A stretch of DNA of 64,000 bases from Microbacterium sp. cx-55 (GTDB lineage Bacteria > Actinomycetota > Actinomycetes > Actinomycetales > Microbacteriaceae): NCBI RefSeq assembly GCF_021117345.1, contig NZ_CP088261.1, forward strand, positions 2,728,001 to 2,792,000, given 5' to 3'. A program made the translations under genes and the position numbers. The notes below the pieces were generated by a model. The model had not been told where the DNA came from. It saw only the letters and a list, made by a program, of their open reading frames with translations, and made no database searches. This document shows positions 31,246-36,496 of the stretch, in pieces (positions within the stretch are counted from its first letter, which is position 1; every line of letters starts with the position of its first letter).

Positions 31246-32403
31246 TCAGAGGGCCCCGAGCGCAGCATCCAGATCGGCGATCAGATCGTCGGCATCCTCG
31301 ATGCCCACCGACAGCCGCACGAGCTCGACGGGAACCGCGAGCTCGGTGCCTCGAACGGAGGCGTGCGTCATCTCGTCGGGGTAGTTCACGAGCGACTCGA
31401 CGCCGCCCAGGGACTCCGCGAGCGTGAACAGACGCGTGCTCTCGGCGAACGTGCGGGCGGCCGGGCCGTCGGCGAGTTCGAGCGACACGATGCCGCCGAA
31501 TCCGCTCATCTGACGCGCCGCGATCTCGTGCCCGGGGTGGGACTCGAGTCCCGGGTAGTAGACGCGGGCGACCCGACTGTCGGCCGCGAGGAAACGCGCG
31601 ACCGCATCCGCGTTCGCGCTGTGCTGTCGCATCCGGATGGCGAGAGTCTTGATGCCGCGTGTCGTCAGCCAGGCATCGAACGGTCCGGAGACGGCGCCGG
31701 CCGCGAACTGCAGGAACTTCACCTGCTCGGCGAGGGCGTCATCGTTCGTGACGATCGCACCGCCGACGACGTCGGAGTGACCGCCGAGGTACTTGGTCGT
31801 CGAATGGACGACGACATCTGCGCCGAGGGCGAGCGGCTGCTGGAGAGCGGGAGAGGCGAACGTGTTGTCGACGACGACGAGCGCCCCGGCGGCACGGCCG
31901 AGCCGGGCGAGCCCGGCGATGTCACTGATCTTCAGCAGCGGGTTCGAGGGGGTCTCCACCCACAGGATGCGGGCGGGACGCTCGTTCAGCGCGTGCTCGA
32001 CGGCGGCGAGGTCGCTCATGTCGACGATGCGCAGGCCCACCCCCCACGGGGCGAGGAGGCGGGCGATCAGACGGTAGGTGCCGCCGTAGACGTCGCTGCC
32101 GAGCAGCACCTCGTCGCCCGGCTTCAGTACAGCGCGCAGCAGCGCGTCTTCGGCGGCGAGGCCGGAGGAGAACGAGATGCCATGCGCGGCGCCCTCGATC
32201 GCCGCGAGCTGCGTTTCGAGCGCCGTGCGCGTCGGGTTGCCGCTGCGTCCGTACTCGTATCCGCCGCGGAGGCCCCCGATACCGTCCTGGGCGTAGGTGG
32301 ACGACATGTGGATCGGCGGGATCACCGCGCCCGTCGTCGGGTCGAACTCCTGTCCGGCGTGCACGGCGAGGCTCGCGAATCCGCGTGCGGCGTTCTCGGT
32401 CAT
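31246..32403 (-). CDS. metB: Cystathionine gamma-synthase / gamma-lyase
   Basis: A 385-residue PLP enzyme of the Cys/Met metabolism family. FEYGRSGNPTR-like YEYGRSGNPTRTALE, VLLGSDVYGGTYRL, the Asp in VVVDNTFASP, the Schiff-base Lys in HSTTKYLGGHSDV (near 199) and the C-terminal LVNYPDEMTHASV and RLSVGIEDADDL are all present. The E/S residues that separate synthase from lyase cannot be settled by eye; next to cbs, cystathionine gamma-lyase activity (reverse transsulfuration to cysteine) is at least as likely as synthesis. ATG overlaps the cbs stop (ATGA), so the two are coupled. Confidence 0.93.
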   Translation of the reverse strand: MTENAARGFASLAVHAGQEFDPTTGAVIPPIHMSSTYAQDGIGGLRGGYEYGRSGNPTRTALETQLAAIEGAAHGISFSSGLAAEDALLRAVLKPGDEVLLGSDVYGGTYRLIARLLAPWGVGLRIVDMSDLAAVEHALNERPARILWVETPSNPLLKISDIAGLARLGRAAGALVVVDNTFASPALQQPLALGADVVVHSTTKYLGGHSDVVGGAIVTNDDALAEQVKFLQFAAGAVSGPFDAWLTTRGIKTLAIRMRQHSANADAVARFLAADSRVARVYYPGLESHPGHEIAARQMSGFGGIVSLELADGPAARTFAESTRLFTLAESLGGVESLVNYPDEMTHASVRGTELAVPVELVRLSVGIEDADDLIADLDAALGAL

Positions 32404-33416
32404 CGTTCTACTCCTGCGTTCGAGGCGGACTCAGCGTGGGCGGTGGCGGGCGCGGGGACGTCGACCTCGTAGCCGTGGTCGCGCATCCAGTCGTCATCGA
32501 AGATCTTGCGGATGTAGCCGCGACCGGAGTCCGGAAGAACGACCACCACGACCGCCTCGGCCGGCAGATCGCGGGCGGCGCGGAGCGCCGCGACGACCGC
32601 CATGCCGCTCGATCCGCCGACCAGGAGACCCTCTTCCCGGGCGAGGCGCCGGGTCATGGCGAACGCATCCGCATCCGAGATCGACAGGTACTCGTCGACG
32701 ACCGCGGGGTCGAACGTGTCGGGGTAGAAGTCCTCCCCCACCCCCTCGACGTCGTATCCGTGCACCTCGCCGCCAGCGTAGATCGAACCGATCGGGTCGG
32801 CGCCGATGACGCGTACCGCACCGTGCGAGACCTCTTTCAGGAACCGCCCGGTGCCGCTGATCGTGCCGCCCGTGCCGATGCCCGCGACGTAGTGCGTGAT
32901 CTCGCCGTCGGTGTCGCGCCAGATCTCGGGGCCGGTGGTCTCGTAGTGGCTGCGCGGGCCGTTCGGATTCGCGAACTGGTTCGGCTTGAAGGCCCCGGGG
33001 ATCTCGCGCGCGAGGCGGTCCGAGACCGAATAGTACGAACGCGGGTCCTCCGGCGGCACGGAGGTCGACGTCTCGACGACCTCGGCGCCGTAGGCCTTCA
33101 GCACGGCGACCTTCTCGCCCGCGAACTTGTCGGGCACGACGAACACCATCCGGTATCCGCGCTGCTGCGCGACGAGCGCGAGTCCGACGCCGGTGTTGCC
33201 GCTGGTCGGTTCGACGATCGTGCCGCCCGGACGCAGCAGCCCGTCGCGCTCGGCCGCGTCGATGATGCGGCTCGCGATTCGGTCCTTGGCGGAACCGCCG
33301 GGGTTGAAGTACTCGACCTTCGCCAGCACGGTCGCGGCGATGTCGCCCGTGACGTGGGTGAGGCGGACGAGGGGGGTATTGCCGACGAGGTCGACGACGC
33401 TCTGGGCGTAACGCAT
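32400..33416 (-). CDS. Cystathionine beta-synthase / cysteine synthase-family enzyme
   Basis: A 338-residue PLP enzyme of the beta-replacing family. Lys44 in NPGGSAKDRIASR is the Schiff-base residue; PTSGNTGVGLAL binds the substrate carboxylate and GIGTGGTISGTGRFLKE the PLP phosphate. The segment DPIGSIYAGGEVHGYDVEGVG with EGLLVGGSSG is typical of cystathionine beta-synthases rather than CysK. It lacks the C-terminal CBS (Bateman) domains of many bacterial and human enzymes, so S-adenosylmethionine control through that domain is absent. AGGA lies 8 nt before ATG, inside the segment predicted to pair with the Cys leader ORF. Confidence 0.92.
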   Translation of the reverse strand: MRYAQSVVDLVGNTPLVRLTHVTGDIAATVLAKVEYFNPGGSAKDRIASRIIDAAERDGLLRPGGTIVEPTSGNTGVGLALVAQQRGYRMVFVVPDKFAGEKVAVLKAYGAEVVETSTSVPPEDPRSYYSVSDRLAREIPGAFKPNQFANPNGPRSHYETTGPEIWRDTDGEITHYVAGIGTGGTISGTGRFLKEVSHGAVRVIGADPIGSIYAGGEVHGYDVEGVGEDFYPDTFDPAVVDEYLSISDADAFAMTRRLAREEGLLVGGSSGMAVVAALRAARDLPAEAVVVVVLPDSGRGYIRKIFDDDWMRDHGYEVDVPAPATAHAESASNAGVER

Positions 33417-33422
33417 GGTGGG

Positions 33423-33430
33423 TGTCCTGT
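33423..33430 (-). promoter_or_regulatory. cbs ribosome-binding site complementary to the Cys leader ORF
   Basis: The RNA here reads ACAGGACA and contains AGGA, 8 nt before the cbs ATG. It is an exact 8-nt complement of UGUCCUGU at 33531-33524 in the leader ORF. Pairing would hide the ribosome-binding site. Confidence 0.6.
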
Positions 33431-33480
33431 TTCGGGAGCCGCGGGGCTATCCCATCGCGGCGGCTGTCGGAAGTCGAGAA

Positions 33481-33510
33481 GAGTGCGCGCGAGAACGCGC
33501 GGGATCACTC
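33481..33510 (-). promoter_or_regulatory. Hairpin directly after the Cys leader ORF
   Basis: GAGTG (33510-33506) pairs with CACTC (33485-33481) and CGCGCG (33501-33496) with CGCGCG (33491-33486) around loop TTCT, with a 4-nt bulge. The 5' arm starts inside the leader stop codon, so a ribosome at the Cys codons or stop would disturb it. TTCTCGACTTCC follows. Confidence 0.55.
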
Positions 33511-33535
33511 AGCGACAACAGCGACAGGACAGCAC
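33509..33535 (-). CDS. Leaderless cysteine-rich leader peptide MLSCRCCR
   Basis: GTG CTG TCC TGT CGC TGT TGT CGC TGA, eight residues with three Cys. A -10 box TAGGGT (33547-33542, minus) ends 6 nt before GTG, which matches the leaderless layout seen at many genes in this window, so the message should begin at the GTG itself. All three Cys codons are TGT, the rarer Cys codon in so GC-rich a genome. It lies 93 nt ahead of cbs. Short Cys-codon leader ORFs that act as cysteine sensors are known in mycobacteria; that this one works so is inference. Confidence 0.7.
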   Translation of the reverse strand: MLSCRCCR

Positions 33536-33541
33536 GCGACG

Positions 33542-33730
33542 ACCCTACCACCGCGAACCGACCGCGCGGGCGCCGGAGATCGGCCGCAGATGACCCCGCG
33601 TGACGACGCGCAACGTTTCGTGACGGCCCGATTCGACTCCGATCGGCCTCCCTGGCGCAATGGGGGAAGCGACCCGATCGGCTCGCCACGATGCACTTTG
33701 CACCTGCTCCCGTACCCGAGAGGAAACACC
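33542..33730. promoter_or_regulatory. Divergent control region between cbs and metQ
   Basis: It holds the cbs -10 (TAGGGT, 33547-33542, minus). Towards metQ there are two CGTGACG repeats starting at 33599 and 33619 (20 bp apart) and two CCGATCGGC palindromes at 33639-33647 and 33674-33682. These are candidate operators for a sulfur or methionine regulator, which is not encoded in the window. No SAM riboswitch motif is seen. GAGAGGAAA precedes the metQ ATG. Confidence 0.4.
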
Positions 33731-34708
33731 ATGTCCGACAAGGACCCCGCAGCCCAGAGCGACCTCCGGTCGTCGGTCGGCTCCGCCCGCACCCGACGCC
33801 GCAACATCTTCATCGGAATCGGCGCCGTCGTCGCCGTGGCGCTCGTCGTCGGAGTCGTCGTGATCGTCAACACGCTCACGAACTCCCCGACCAGCGCCGC
33901 CGCGGGCGACGAGCGCCTGACGCTGCGCATCGCGACCTCCGAGGACACCGACTTCCAGAGCGCGATCGGTGACATCGCCGCCGAGAAGGGACTGGACGTC
34001 GAGTGGGTCAACGTCGATGACTGGGTGCTGCCGAACACTGAACTCGCCGCCGGCACGGTCGATGGCAACGCCTTCCAGCACATCCTGTACCTCTCGAACT
34101 TCAACGCGCAGAACGGCGAAGACCTGACGCCCGTCTTCTCCACCGTCATCACGCAGTGGGGCATCTTCTCCGCCACCCTCGGCGGCACCGACGAGATCCC
34201 GGATGGCGGACGCATCGCCATCCCCGACGACCCCTCCAACGGCGGACGCGCACTCGGCATCCTCGCCGCGGCGGGTCTCATCGAGCTGTCCTCGGATGCG
34301 GGCGACTTCCCGACCGTCGACGACATCACCGCGAACCCGCAGAACCTGGAGTTCGTGCCGATCGCCGCCACCACCATCCCGCAGCAGTTCGACGACCCGA
34401 GCCTGTCGGCCGTCGTCGTGGGGCTGTCGTACTTCGACCCGTCGCAGAACATCACCGCCGACGACGCGCTCTACCTCGACGACTCGCTCGATGAGAAGAA
34501 CCTGCCGTACACGAACGTGATCGCGAGCCGCGCCGACAACGCGGACGACCCGGCCTGGAAGATCCTCGAGGAGGCCTACGCCGACCCGCGCGCCGCCGAG
34601 GCGCTCGAGACCGAGGACAAGGGCGCGACCGTGCTCGTGCAGGTTCCGGTCGAGACGCTCCGCGACAAGCTCGCAGAGCTCGAGAAGTCCGCAGCCTCGA
34701 ACGGCTGA
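33731..34708 (+). CDS. metQ: MetQ/NlpA-family substrate-binding protein, membrane-anchored
   Basis: A 325-residue binding protein of a methionine-type ABC importer. The mature part has the NlpA signs: LTLRIATSEDTDFQSAIGDI, NAFQHILYLSNFNAQNGEDL and IAIPDDPSNGGRALGILAAAGLIEL. Unusually there is no lipobox Cys; instead a basic segment (ARTRRRNIFIG) and one membrane span near 25-48 should anchor it. The substrate may be methionine or another sulfur compound. ATG at 33731 follows GAGAGGAAA. A 26-bp inverted repeat separates it from metN. Confidence 0.9.
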   Translation: MSDKDPAAQSDLRSSVGSARTRRRNIFIGIGAVVAVALVVGVVVIVNTLTNSPTSAAAGDERLTLRIATSEDTDFQSAIGDIAAEKGLDVEWVNVDDWVLPNTELAAGTVDGNAFQHILYLSNFNAQNGEDLTPVFSTVITQWGIFSATLGGTDEIPDGGRIAIPDDPSNGGRALGILAAAGLIELSSDAGDFPTVDDITANPQNLEFVPIAATTIPQQFDDPSLSAVVVGLSYFDPSQNITADDALYLDDSLDEKNLPYTNVIASRADNADDPAWKILEEAYADPRAAEALETEDKGATVLVQVPVETLRDKLAELEKSAASNG

Positions 34709-34722
34709 CCCGTCCCCGCCTC

Positions 34723-34777
34723 ACTTGCCTTGAATGCACGGGCGACACGCTGTGTCGCCCGTGCATTCAAGGCAAGT
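34723..34777. repeat. Perfect 26-bp inverted repeat between metQ and metN
   Basis: Arms 34723-34748 and 34752-34777 are exact complements with a 3-nt loop GCT. It lies inside the presumed operon, 15 nt after the metQ stop and 22 nt before the metN start. It could lower downstream expression or protect the metQ message 3' end, so the binding protein would be made in excess over the transporter. Confidence 0.85.
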
Positions 34778-34799
34778 CAGCGTGTGTCCGAGGAGGACC

Positions 34800-35840
34800 A
34801 TGAGCACCGCCATCCGCTTCGAGAACGTCACGAAGACCTTCACCACCGCCAAACGCACCTCGTTCACGGCGTTGAAGAACGTGTCGCTCGACATCGATCC
34901 CGGCGACATCTACGGCATCGTCGGGTACTCCGGCGCCGGCAAATCCACGCTGCTCCGCACGGTCAACGCCCTCGAGCGGCCCACGAGCGGGCGCGTGATC
35001 GTCGGCGATCAGGTCGTCTCCGACCTCACCGGCGCCGCGCTCTCCCGCGCACGCCAGAACATCGGCATGATCTTCCAGCAGTTCAACCTGCTTCGTTCGC
35101 GCACCGTGTACAAAAACATCGCGTACCCGCTGCGTCTCGCGGGCGTCTCCGAGTCCGACACACTCGACCGCGTCGAGGAACTGCTCGACTTCGTCGGCCT
35201 GACCGACAAGGCGCTGCAGTACCCCTCGCAGCTCTCCGGAGGACAGAAGCAGCGGGTCGGCATCGCCCGGGCACTCGCGAACCGCCCGGACGTGCTCATC
35301 AGCGATGAGGCCACGAGCGCCCTCGATCCGCAGACCACGAGCGAAGTGCTCGAGCTGCTGCGCCGCATCCACACCGAGTACGGCATCACGATCCTGGTCG
35401 TCACGCACGAGATGGACGTCATCCGCGAGGTCTGCAACAAGGTCGCCGTCATGCAGAACGGCGAGGTCGTCGAACACGGCAGCGTCTACGACGTGTTCGC
35501 CCACCCACAGCATCCGACCTCGCAGCGCTTCGTCGCGTCGGTGCTGCACCACCTGCCCTCGGCCGACACGATCCGCCGCATCCGCGCCGTGCACACCGGC
35601 CGCCTCGTGCAGTTGCACGTCGAGAACCGCGAGTCGAACGACCCGTTCCTCTCGCGCATCGCGCGCACGCACGATGTCGACGTGAACGTCGTCTACGGCG
35701 GGGTCGACGAGCTGCAGTCCCGCCTGTTCGGCAGCCTCACGGTGGAACTCCTCGGCGCCGAACAGAACATCGATCGCGCGATCGCCGACCTCCGCCAGGG
35801 GTCGCTCGTGACAGAACTCGCGGATGGAGCCGCCGCATGA
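34800..35840 (+). CDS. metN: Methionine-type ABC importer ATP-binding protein
   Basis: A 346-residue ATPase. Walker A GYSGAGKST, Q-loop IFQQFNLL, signature LSGGQKQRVGIARAL, Walker B VLISDEATSALD and the switch His in VVTHEMDV are all intact. The C-terminal 90 residues (about 260-340) are the NIL domain of MetN-type importers, which senses intracellular methionine and shuts transport. AGGAGGA lies 6-7 nt before ATG. The stop overlaps metI by 4 nt. Confidence 0.95.
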   Translation: MSTAIRFENVTKTFTTAKRTSFTALKNVSLDIDPGDIYGIVGYSGAGKSTLLRTVNALERPTSGRVIVGDQVVSDLTGAALSRARQNIGMIFQQFNLLRSRTVYKNIAYPLRLAGVSESDTLDRVEELLDFVGLTDKALQYPSQLSGGQKQRVGIARALANRPDVLISDEATSALDPQTTSEVLELLRRIHTEYGITILVVTHEMDVIREVCNKVAVMQNGEVVEHGSVYDVFAHPQHPTSQRFVASVLHHLPSADTIRRIRAVHTGRLVQLHVENRESNDPFLSRIARTHDVDVNVVYGGVDELQSRLFGSLTVELLGAEQNIDRAIADLRQGSLVTELADGAAA

Positions 35841-36496
35841 ACGACTACCTCGACGCCCTTCTCCCCCGCATCAACAAGGCACTGTTCGAGACCCTGCTGA
35901 TGGTGAGCGTCTCGTTCGTGCTCGCCACGGTGATCGGGCTCCTTCTCGGCCTGCTGCTCTACGCGACGCGGCCCGGCAACCTGCTGCAGAACCGTGGGGT
36001 GTTCGGCGGGCTCAACCTGATCATCAACATCGTGCGACCGATCCCGTTCCTCATCGTCGCTGTCTCACTCATCCCGTTCACCCGGCTTCTCATCGGCACG
36101 AGCATCGGTCCGCAGGCCGCGATCGTGCCGCTGACCCTGGTCGCCTCCGTCGCCATCGCCCGCATCGCGGAGTCGAACCTCGTCGCGGTCGACCCGGGAG
36201 CGATCGAGGCGGGCGCGGCCATGGGCGCGCGACCGGCGCGCGTGCTGTTCACGATCGTCGTGCCGGAGTCGCTCGGGCCGCTGACCCTCGGGCTGACCTA
36301 CATCCTCGTGGCGCTCGTGGATGCGACGGCGGTGGCCGGCGTGCTCGGCGGCGGCGGCCTCGGCGACCTCGCCATGAAGTACGGCTACCAGCGCTTCGAC
36401 TGGCTCGTCATCGGGATCATCGTGCTGATCCTCATCGTGCTGGTGCAGTTCGCGCAGCTTCTCGGCAACTGGGTATCTCGGAAGGTGATGCACTGA
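35837..36496 (+). CDS. metI: Methionine-type ABC importer permease
   Basis: A 219-residue permease with five to six membrane spans and the inner-membrane coupling motif EAGAAMGARPARVLFTIVVPESLGPLTLG. NIVRPIPFLIVAVSLIPFTRLLIGT and the ending RFDWLVIGIIVLILIVLVQ are typical of MetI. It forms a dimer channel with MetN. ATGA overlaps metN, and its stop overlaps the next gene by one nt (TGATG), tying the importer to the monooxygenases that follow. Confidence 0.95.
   Translation: MNDYLDALLPRINKALFETLLMVSVSFVLATVIGLLLGLLLYATRPGNLLQNRGVFGGLNLIINIVRPIPFLIVAVSLIPFTRLLIGTSIGPQAAIVPLTLVASVAIARIAESNLVAVDPGAIEAGAAMGARPARVLFTIVVPESLGPLTLGLTYILVALVDATAVAGVLGGGGLGDLAMKYGYQRFDWLVIGIIVLILIVLVQFAQLLGNWVSRKVMH

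What the first reader, a model, noticed from the sequence alone, without database searches (positions are those of the whole stretch)
33416..33547. Cysteine-sensing leader ORF that can mask the cbs ribosome-binding site
Seen: on the minus strand a TAGGGT -10 box sits 6 nt before GTG of an 8-codon ORF, MLSCRCCR, with three TGT Cys codons. Its codons 2-4 contain TGTCCTGT, an exact 8-nt complement of ACAGGACA over the cbs ribosome-binding site 93-100 nt downstream. A stem-loop begins inside the ORF's stop codon. Known: short Cys-codon ORFs act as cysteine sensors in mycobacteria. Inferred: when charged tRNA-Cys is scarce, the ribosome stalls on the ORF, covers TGTCCTGT and frees the cbs start; when cysteine is ample it leaves, and cbs-metB are silenced. 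A leaderless sensor ORF that itself provides the anti-ribosome-binding-site strand is an economical design.
Basis: partly seen in the sequence, partly recalled or inferred. Interest (0 to 1): 0.88.

Follow-up and report, generated by a model that had tools for sequence, protein, structure and literature searches.

The report
Cysteine-sensing mini-gene before cbs
Just before the cysteine-making genes cbs and metB sits an eight-codon mini-gene with three cysteine codons that very probably serves as a cysteine gauge; its sequence can also fold over the start signal of cbs, a kind of switch already known from mycobacteria and here found across another bacterial family.

Summary
In detail: TAGGGT, 6 nt, GTG-CTG-TCC-TGT-CGC-TGT-TGT-CGC-TGA, and TGTCCTGT is exactly complementary to ACAGGACA over the cbs Shine-Dalgarno site, SD. 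The ORF is not chance: 79 of 97 Microbacterium-type cbs upstream regions by a strict scan, 0 in shuffles; no other hit in the window. Differently worded Cys ORFs precede cbs in 17 of 64 other Microbacteriaceae loci, never where cbs itself looks leaderless. Their Cys codons are 86-93% UGU although ordinary genes prefer UGC. A cysteine-responsive attenuator is well supported. SD masking by the ORF is partly supported: in silico, masking the ORF frees the SD better than masking other segments in 17 of 18 genera. But only 2 of 74 Microbacterium leaders reach 8 bp, 4.5% of between-genus swaps do, and a whole-fold swap test was null. The kind is known: mycobacterial polycysteine attenuators (Canestrari 2020, abstract recalled) and the B. 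longum cbs leader (PMC1262725). New member of a known kind.

The parts
33542..33547 (-). -10-like hexamer TAGGGT, 6 nt before the ORF start
   Evidence: a TAnnnT box 6 nt (62 cases) or 7 nt (17 cases) before the start in 79 of 81 leaders, absent in L002 and L023
33509..33535 (-). probably leaderless Cys-sensor ORF MLSCRCCR (GTG ... TGA), three TGT codons
33524..33531 (-). TGTCCTGT, in codons 2-4, complementary to the cbs ribosome-binding site
33481..33510 (-). stem-loop that starts inside the stop codon (GAGTG...CACTC); other stems at this place in relatives (for example GAACG/CGTTC, GAGCC/GGCTC)
33463..33476 (-). element CGAC....GACAGC, predicted to pair with the Cys tract (GCTGTT and GTCG, 33522-33513)
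   Evidence: fold; covariation modest
33438..33461 (-). hairpin GCCGCG...CGCGGC between that element and the SD
   Evidence: fold
33423..33430 (-). ACAGGACA over the cbs Shine-Dalgarno (AGGA 33428-33425)
32400..33416 (-). cbs, cystathionine beta-synthase-like PLP enzyme, 338 aa; only a PALP domain found
   Evidence: best NCBIfam match TIGR01137 cysta_beta, 489 bits, cut-off 510
31246..32403 (-). metB-like cystathionine gamma-synthase/lyase family gene, start overlaps the cbs stop (ATGA)
   Evidence: NF005871 above its cut-off

Best explanation
A cysteine-responsive attenuator of the cbs-metB operon driven by a leaderless polycysteine uORF. Inferred working: transcription starts at the GTG and a ribosome loads on the bare 5' end. 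When Cys-tRNA is scarce it halts at the UGU codons; its footprint covers nearly the whole 24-nt coding part, so the ORF strand cannot pair with the cbs SD, and cbs (with metB, coupled through the ATGA overlap) is translated to make cysteine from homocysteine. When cysteine is ample the ribosome finishes eight codons at once and the 5' part of the ORF folds back on the RBS (in the window GUG and UGUCCUGU pair with ACAGGACA and bases 3' of it), with the stop-codon stem-loop and the next hairpin bringing the two ends together; cbs is silenced. Shown here: anatomy, conservation of ORF, box, Cys codons, UGU choice and target gene, and the predicted fold. Inferred: transcript start, stalling, cysteine response, and translational rather than transcriptional output.
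For: ORF before cbs in 81 of 97 Microbacterium-type upstream regions by a loose scan (74 distinct leaders) and 79 of 97 by the strict scan, 0 in shuffles. Different Cys ORFs in 17 of 64 loci of other Microbacteriaceae genera and in 3 of 25 loci outside the family. Never with a leaderless-looking cbs: 0 of 42 against 31 of 62. Cys codons UGU:UGC 219:16 (Microbacterium) and 102:16 (other genera) against 39:119, 17:89 and 15:84 in ordinary genes. SD of the window fully paired with the ORF when free, mostly open when it is masked; 17 of 18 genera respond more to masking the ORF than other segments. AGGACA in 16 of 32 leader-bearing RBSs with AGGA (other genera and window; 25 of 68 in Microbacterium) against 6 of 107 background genes. 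ORF/RBS pairing better than genus swaps (energy median p 0.008, longest helix 0.002). No intrinsic terminator.
Against: No expression data. The 8-bp helix is absent from the near relatives looked at; 72 of 74 Microbacterium leaders have fewer than 8 nt of perfect pairing, mostly 4 to 6. Within Microbacterium a first duplex test gave native = swapped (2110 of 5000 shuffles as good); other segment choices gave anything from 0 to 2194 of 5000. Whole-fold swap test null: SD-ORF pairing 0.454 native, 0.453 swapped. The number of genera with 7 nt or more equals the swap expectation (5 against 4.9; 3 against 1.8 for 8 nt). L004-type leaders show no SD change when the ORF is masked. The background for AGGACA is Microbacterium DNA while the 32 are mostly from other genera.
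Confidence: 0.65

Rival explanations
1. Same Cys sensor, but the output is transcriptional: the stalled or finished ribosome decides Rho-dependent (or another non-intrinsic) termination between ORF and cbs, as suggested for mycobacterial cys operons in 2005.
For: PMC1262725 proposed Rho, weakly, for cys leaders (part 1 of 3 read). No intrinsic terminator is found. In some clades masking the ORF hardly changes predicted SD accessibility, so another output would be needed there.
Against: Masking the ORF frees the SD more than other segments in 17 of 18 genera; RBS context biased to complement Cys codons. The C-rich CGACC word downstream is not enriched over shuffles.
Confidence: 0.2
2. A refinement of the best explanation rather than its opposite: the ORF senses cysteine and masks the SD, but through loose, composition-based pairing and not through the named 8-bp helix. 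Any UGU-rich ORF is complementary to an AGGACA-type RBS.
For: Foreign Cys ORFs pair with the SD as well as native ones in whole folds; 8-nt matches arise in 4.5% of swaps; most Microbacterium leaders have 4-6 nt; UGU inversion and AGGACA enrichment.
Against: Some native pairs are long: window and L184 8 nt, L191 9 nt, L290 11 nt; mean native duplex energy and helix length exceed swaps.
Confidence: 0.4
3. The leader ORF raises cbs translation by delivering ribosomes (reinitiation or coupling), without sensing cysteine.
For: PMC4833913 proposes reinitiation at leader peptides in general (search listing with start of abstract only).
Against: It gives no role to Cys runs conserved in otherwise divergent peptides or to the inverted Cys codon choice; the stop lies 92 nt before cbs in the window.
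Confidence: 0.05
4. Chance ORF without function.
For: The 8-nt complementarity alone is weak evidence.
Against: 0 to 1 hits per shuffle round against 42 of 104 and 79 of 97.
Confidence: 0.01

Closest known systems
Polycysteine leaderless short ORFs of Mycobacterium smegmatis (Canestrari et al. 2020, Mol Microbiol 114:93; paper not held; abstract recalled; passages of papers citing it read)
   Same: Leaderless short ORF with clustered Cys codons directly upstream of cysteine-metabolism genes; proposed ribosome stalling that disrupts a structure hiding the downstream RBS
   Different: Other family, other operon (cbs-metB), only 8 codons, Cys codons split by Arg; in this genome a single exact match to the core pattern (7 further places with 2 mismatches were not inspected); no experiment here
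Candidate Cys leader peptides of cys operons and of Bifidobacterium longum cbs (Seliverstov et al. 2005, PMC1262725; part 1 of 3 of the text read)
   Same: Short ORF with a Cys run before cbs or cys genes, no conserved terminator
   Different: That paper considered Rho termination, gave no SD-masking structure for cys leaders, and named no Microbacteriaceae in the part read
uORFC-8-2 motif upstream of cysS in Rhodobacterales (PMC8632094, passage read)
   Same: uORF with Cys codons inside the first stem, attenuation by shortage of charged Cys-tRNA
   Different: Alphaproteobacteria, cysS, ends in an intrinsic terminator, Cys codons usually at positions 14 and 15
Translation attenuators in which a uORF strand occludes the SD (general scheme stated in PMC13236596, passage read)
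   Same: uORF base pairs with downstream sequence, ribosome stalling unmasks the SD
   Different: The signal here would be Cys-tRNA charging

Membership tests
Polycysteine leaderless uORF attenuator (Canestrari type; features from the recalled abstract) | Short ORF with clustered Cys codons upstream of a cysteine-metabolism operon | tested here: met
Polycysteine leaderless uORF attenuator (Canestrari type; features from the recalled abstract) | Leaderless initiation (start codon at the 5' end) | tested here: inconclusive
   TAnnnT box 6-7 nt before the start in 79 of 81 leaders; no 5' end data
Polycysteine leaderless uORF attenuator (Canestrari type; features from the recalled abstract) | mRNA structure hides the RBS of the downstream gene and is opened by a ribosome on the Cys tract | tested here: inconclusive
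   predicted in the window and most genera; swap test null; 8-bp helix not conserved
Polycysteine leaderless uORF attenuator (Canestrari type; features from the recalled abstract) | Downstream expression rises on cysteine limitation, dependent on Cys codons | not testable with these tools
   needs reporter or proteome data
Classical transcription attenuator | Intrinsic terminator between leader ORF and first gene | tested here: not met
   0 terminator-like sites in 33300-33760
Described Rfam families | Match to a covariance model | tested here: not met
   0 matches at gathering level in the window, 0 at E<=1 in 33300-33800
uORFC-8-2 cysS motif | Upstream of cysS, Cys codons at 14-15, terminal U run | tested here: not met
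   target is cbs, Cys at 4, 6, 7, no terminator

The most novel reading that the evidence does not exclude
The sensing codon is itself the masking strand. UGU codons and the bare 5' start (GUG) are natural complements of an AGGACA(C) ribosome-binding site, so a leaderless poly-UGU ORF is at once cysteine gauge, anti-RBS and lock on its own start codon. This would explain the inverted Cys codon choice, the AGGACA bias of the cbs RBS, and why unrelated peptides keep the same logic without one conserved helix, with lineages switching between this device and a leaderless cbs.
Probability: 0.3. Interest if true: 0.66.

Novelty: new member of a known kind. Interest (0 to 1): 0.47.

Why it matters
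It carries cysteine attenuation by tiny, probably leaderless ORFs to Microbacteriaceae and to a likely reverse-transsulfuration operon, with 116 distinct leaders in 18 genera on which the role of codon choice and of ORF/RBS pairing can be tested. The UGU inversion and the either/or relation between leader ORF and leaderless cbs are simple, checkable regularities.

Tried and rejected
Rejected: the 8-bp helix as a conserved feature (2 of 74 distinct Microbacterium leaders reach 8 nt). A CGACC element after the stop looked conserved by eye across genera but is not enriched over shuffles. RNAalifold on the MAFFT alignment gave a 5-pair consensus of -0.41 kcal/mol, probably because of indels. A hand-set pairing of the Cys tract with the CGAC..GACAG element shows modest covariation (covariation score 0 of 500 shuffles as high, cells changed on both sides 7 of 500, but pairs changed on both sides 195 of 500). 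First within-genus duplex test null. AUG/GUG start against CAU/CAC near the SD: suggestive cases (L002, L016, L175), but 19 GUG leaders also have CAU and 7 of 11 AUG leaders have neither. Intrinsic terminator: none. The loci of the other PLP-enzyme hits in the own genome (L082-L084) have no such ORF; cysS was located but its upstream DNA was not scanned.

Rows dropped or not fetched: L026 (record named Nanopelagicales) left out of the Microbacterium set; that set keeps records titled Microbacteriaceae bacterium (L013, L019), Planococcus (L020) and Actinomycetota (L033). Of 45 cbs places without a locus, 40 were fetched; G001, G014, G095, G034 were not, and G030 has no upstream DNA. Of 66 non-own family genomes with cbs, 64 were examined; the weak hits G147 and G108 were not. 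Of the 40 extra loci, 20 were the best-scoring new hits and 20 were picked, 18 of these from genera already known to have the ORF, so 42 of 104 is a biased rate and 17 of 64 the fairer one. In the order scan 25 non-family loci were examined, L312 and L323 with misplaced starts.

Full report
What is there. On the minus strand the described features are all present at the stated places. The gene at 33416-32400 is a cystathionine beta-synthase-like PLP enzyme (best NCBIfam match TIGR01137, 489 bits against a cut-off of 510; only a PALP domain in Pfam). It overlaps by ATGA with a cystathionine gamma-synthase/lyase family gene. Divergent to it lie genes whose best matches are MetQ/NlpA, MetN and MetI. 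The own genome has no match to the PAPS reductase family, which was found in all 14 control genomes, so a role of cbs-metB in supplying cysteine from methionine-derived homocysteine is likely (inference).

The leader ORF is real. Relatives were taken in three ways: 80 loci from genome contigs, 99 genomes of the genus of which 75 had cbs at E<=1e-80, and 86 genomes of the family of which 67 had it. Among 97 Microbacterium-type upstream regions (27, 29 loci, 40 fetched, and the window) 81 have the ORF by a loose scan, 74 of them distinct, and 79 by a strict one, with 0 in ten rounds of shuffling and 0 on the reverse strand. The peptide is nearly fixed (MLTCRCCR; variants with an extra second residue, LTLRCC, or an RPCC tail). 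A TAnnnT box stands 6 or 7 nt before the start in 79 of 81. In the 16 without the ORF a TAnnnT box stands directly before cbs instead. A 19-base core pattern (up to 1 mismatch) occurs in 142 of 366 genomes of the genus, mostly once per genome, against five hits of the reversed control; that each lies before cbs was not checked. In the window and in 184,778 bases of L001-L027 the strict pattern hits only the cbs leader (1 and 24 hits).

It reaches beyond the genus. Of 64 cbs loci of other Microbacteriaceae genera 17 have a leaderless-looking Cys ORF of different sequence, such as VFLSCCRH, MRLRLSCSCCPR, VNISRSCCRR, VSTVKSCCCCR; four more have a Cys-rich ORF without the box. With 40 more loci, half of them picked mainly from these genera, 42 of 104 have one, against 0 to 1 per shuffle round. 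None of the 42 has a -10-like box directly before cbs, while 31 of the 62 others do (related sequences, so its p-value of 1.9e-9 is optimistic). One genus besides Microbacterium shows both states in different species (g54). Outside the family 3 of 25 loci have such an ORF (L304, L305, L316), and none of the 52 loci L028 to L080 without L033, all from outside the genus, has one with the box.

Codon choice. Cys codons in the leaders are UGU:UGC 219:16 (Microbacterium) and 102:16 (other genera), whereas predicted genes in the same DNA have 39:119, 17:89 and, in the window, 15:84 (gene sets are simple long, GC3-rich ORFs; leaders of one genus are related). Cysteine sensing explains Cys codons; the choice of UGU needs slow decoding, base pairing, or both.

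Does the ORF mask the RBS? In the window the minimum-energy fold closes with UGUCCUGU paired to ACAGGACA and the GUG paired to 33420-33418; the SD is fully paired when free and 0.62 unpaired with the footprint masked. Over 18 genera, masking the ORF raises predicted SD accessibility to 0.61 against 0.43 for masking other segments of equal length, higher in 17 of 18; within Microbacterium in 63 of 74. Native ORF/RBS duplexes beat between-genus swaps moderately (energy median p 0.008, longest helix 0.002 for -18..+3; comparisons outside the RBS region 0.06 to 0.996), with long single cases (L166 7 nt, L184 8, L191 9, L290 11). AGGACA stands in 16 of 32 leader-bearing RBSs with AGGA against 6 of 107 other genes (25 of 68 in Microbacterium leaders and 2 of 9 in family cbs genes without a detected leader).

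Results against it. 8 nt or more arises in 4.5% of swaps, and the number of genera with 7 nt or more is what swaps give. The whole-fold swap test shows no difference. Only 2 of 74 Microbacterium leaders reach 8 nt; L001, L013 and L102 have 4, and codon 3 is ACC there, not TCC. L004-type leaders show no predicted SD change. Within-genus duplex tests range from null to strong with the segment chosen. I conclude that a Cys ORF is generically able to hide this RBS, and that the exact 8 bp in the window is a local strengthening, not the conserved core.

Literature. Canestrari et al. 2020 is not held; its abstract is recalled, and passages of papers citing it were read. Seliverstov et al. 2005 (PMC1262725, part 1 of 3 read) already reported a Cys leader peptide before B. 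longum cbs. The papers listed by the searches showed, by title and abstract start, no description of a Cys leader in Microbacteriaceae; the library lacks most subscription papers.

Verdict. A genuine, conserved, probably cysteine-sensing leader of a kind already known; direct SD masking is the most likely mechanism but stays a prediction.

Noticed in passing
window 32400-33416 (minus); L306: CBS of leader-bearing Microbacterium is mostly 326-344 aa (338 in the window, PALP domain only), whereas the one Microbacterium without the leader that was measured (L306) has 462 aa and 21 of 22 leader-bearing proteins of other genera have 453-459 aa with extra C-terminal sequence. Loss of a C-terminal regulatory part may go with the RNA device in this genus.
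   Followed up: partly
L141-L143, L145, L146, L150, L152-L161 upstream of cbs: In a second Microbacterium group cbs looks leaderless itself (for example TACCCT 6 nt before ATG), mostly behind another gene, with no Cys ORF.
   Followed up: partly
own genome G000: No match to the PAPS reductase family PF01507, found in all 14 control genomes: sulfate assimilation of the usual type seems absent.
   Followed up: partly
window 33731-36496 (plus): Genes best matching MetQ/NlpA, MetN (with NIL domain) and MetI stand divergent to cbs-metB, fitting methionine import as sulfur source.
   Followed up: partly
L009, L010, L012, L096, L104: A clade has CTT in place of Cys codon 4 while the RBS reads CAGGAAG; CUUC can pair with GAAG. 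Possible co-change, not tested on a tree.
   Followed up: no
L304, L305, L316: Cys ORFs before cbs in two other families of the order, again with an AGGACAC ribosome-binding site.
   Followed up: no
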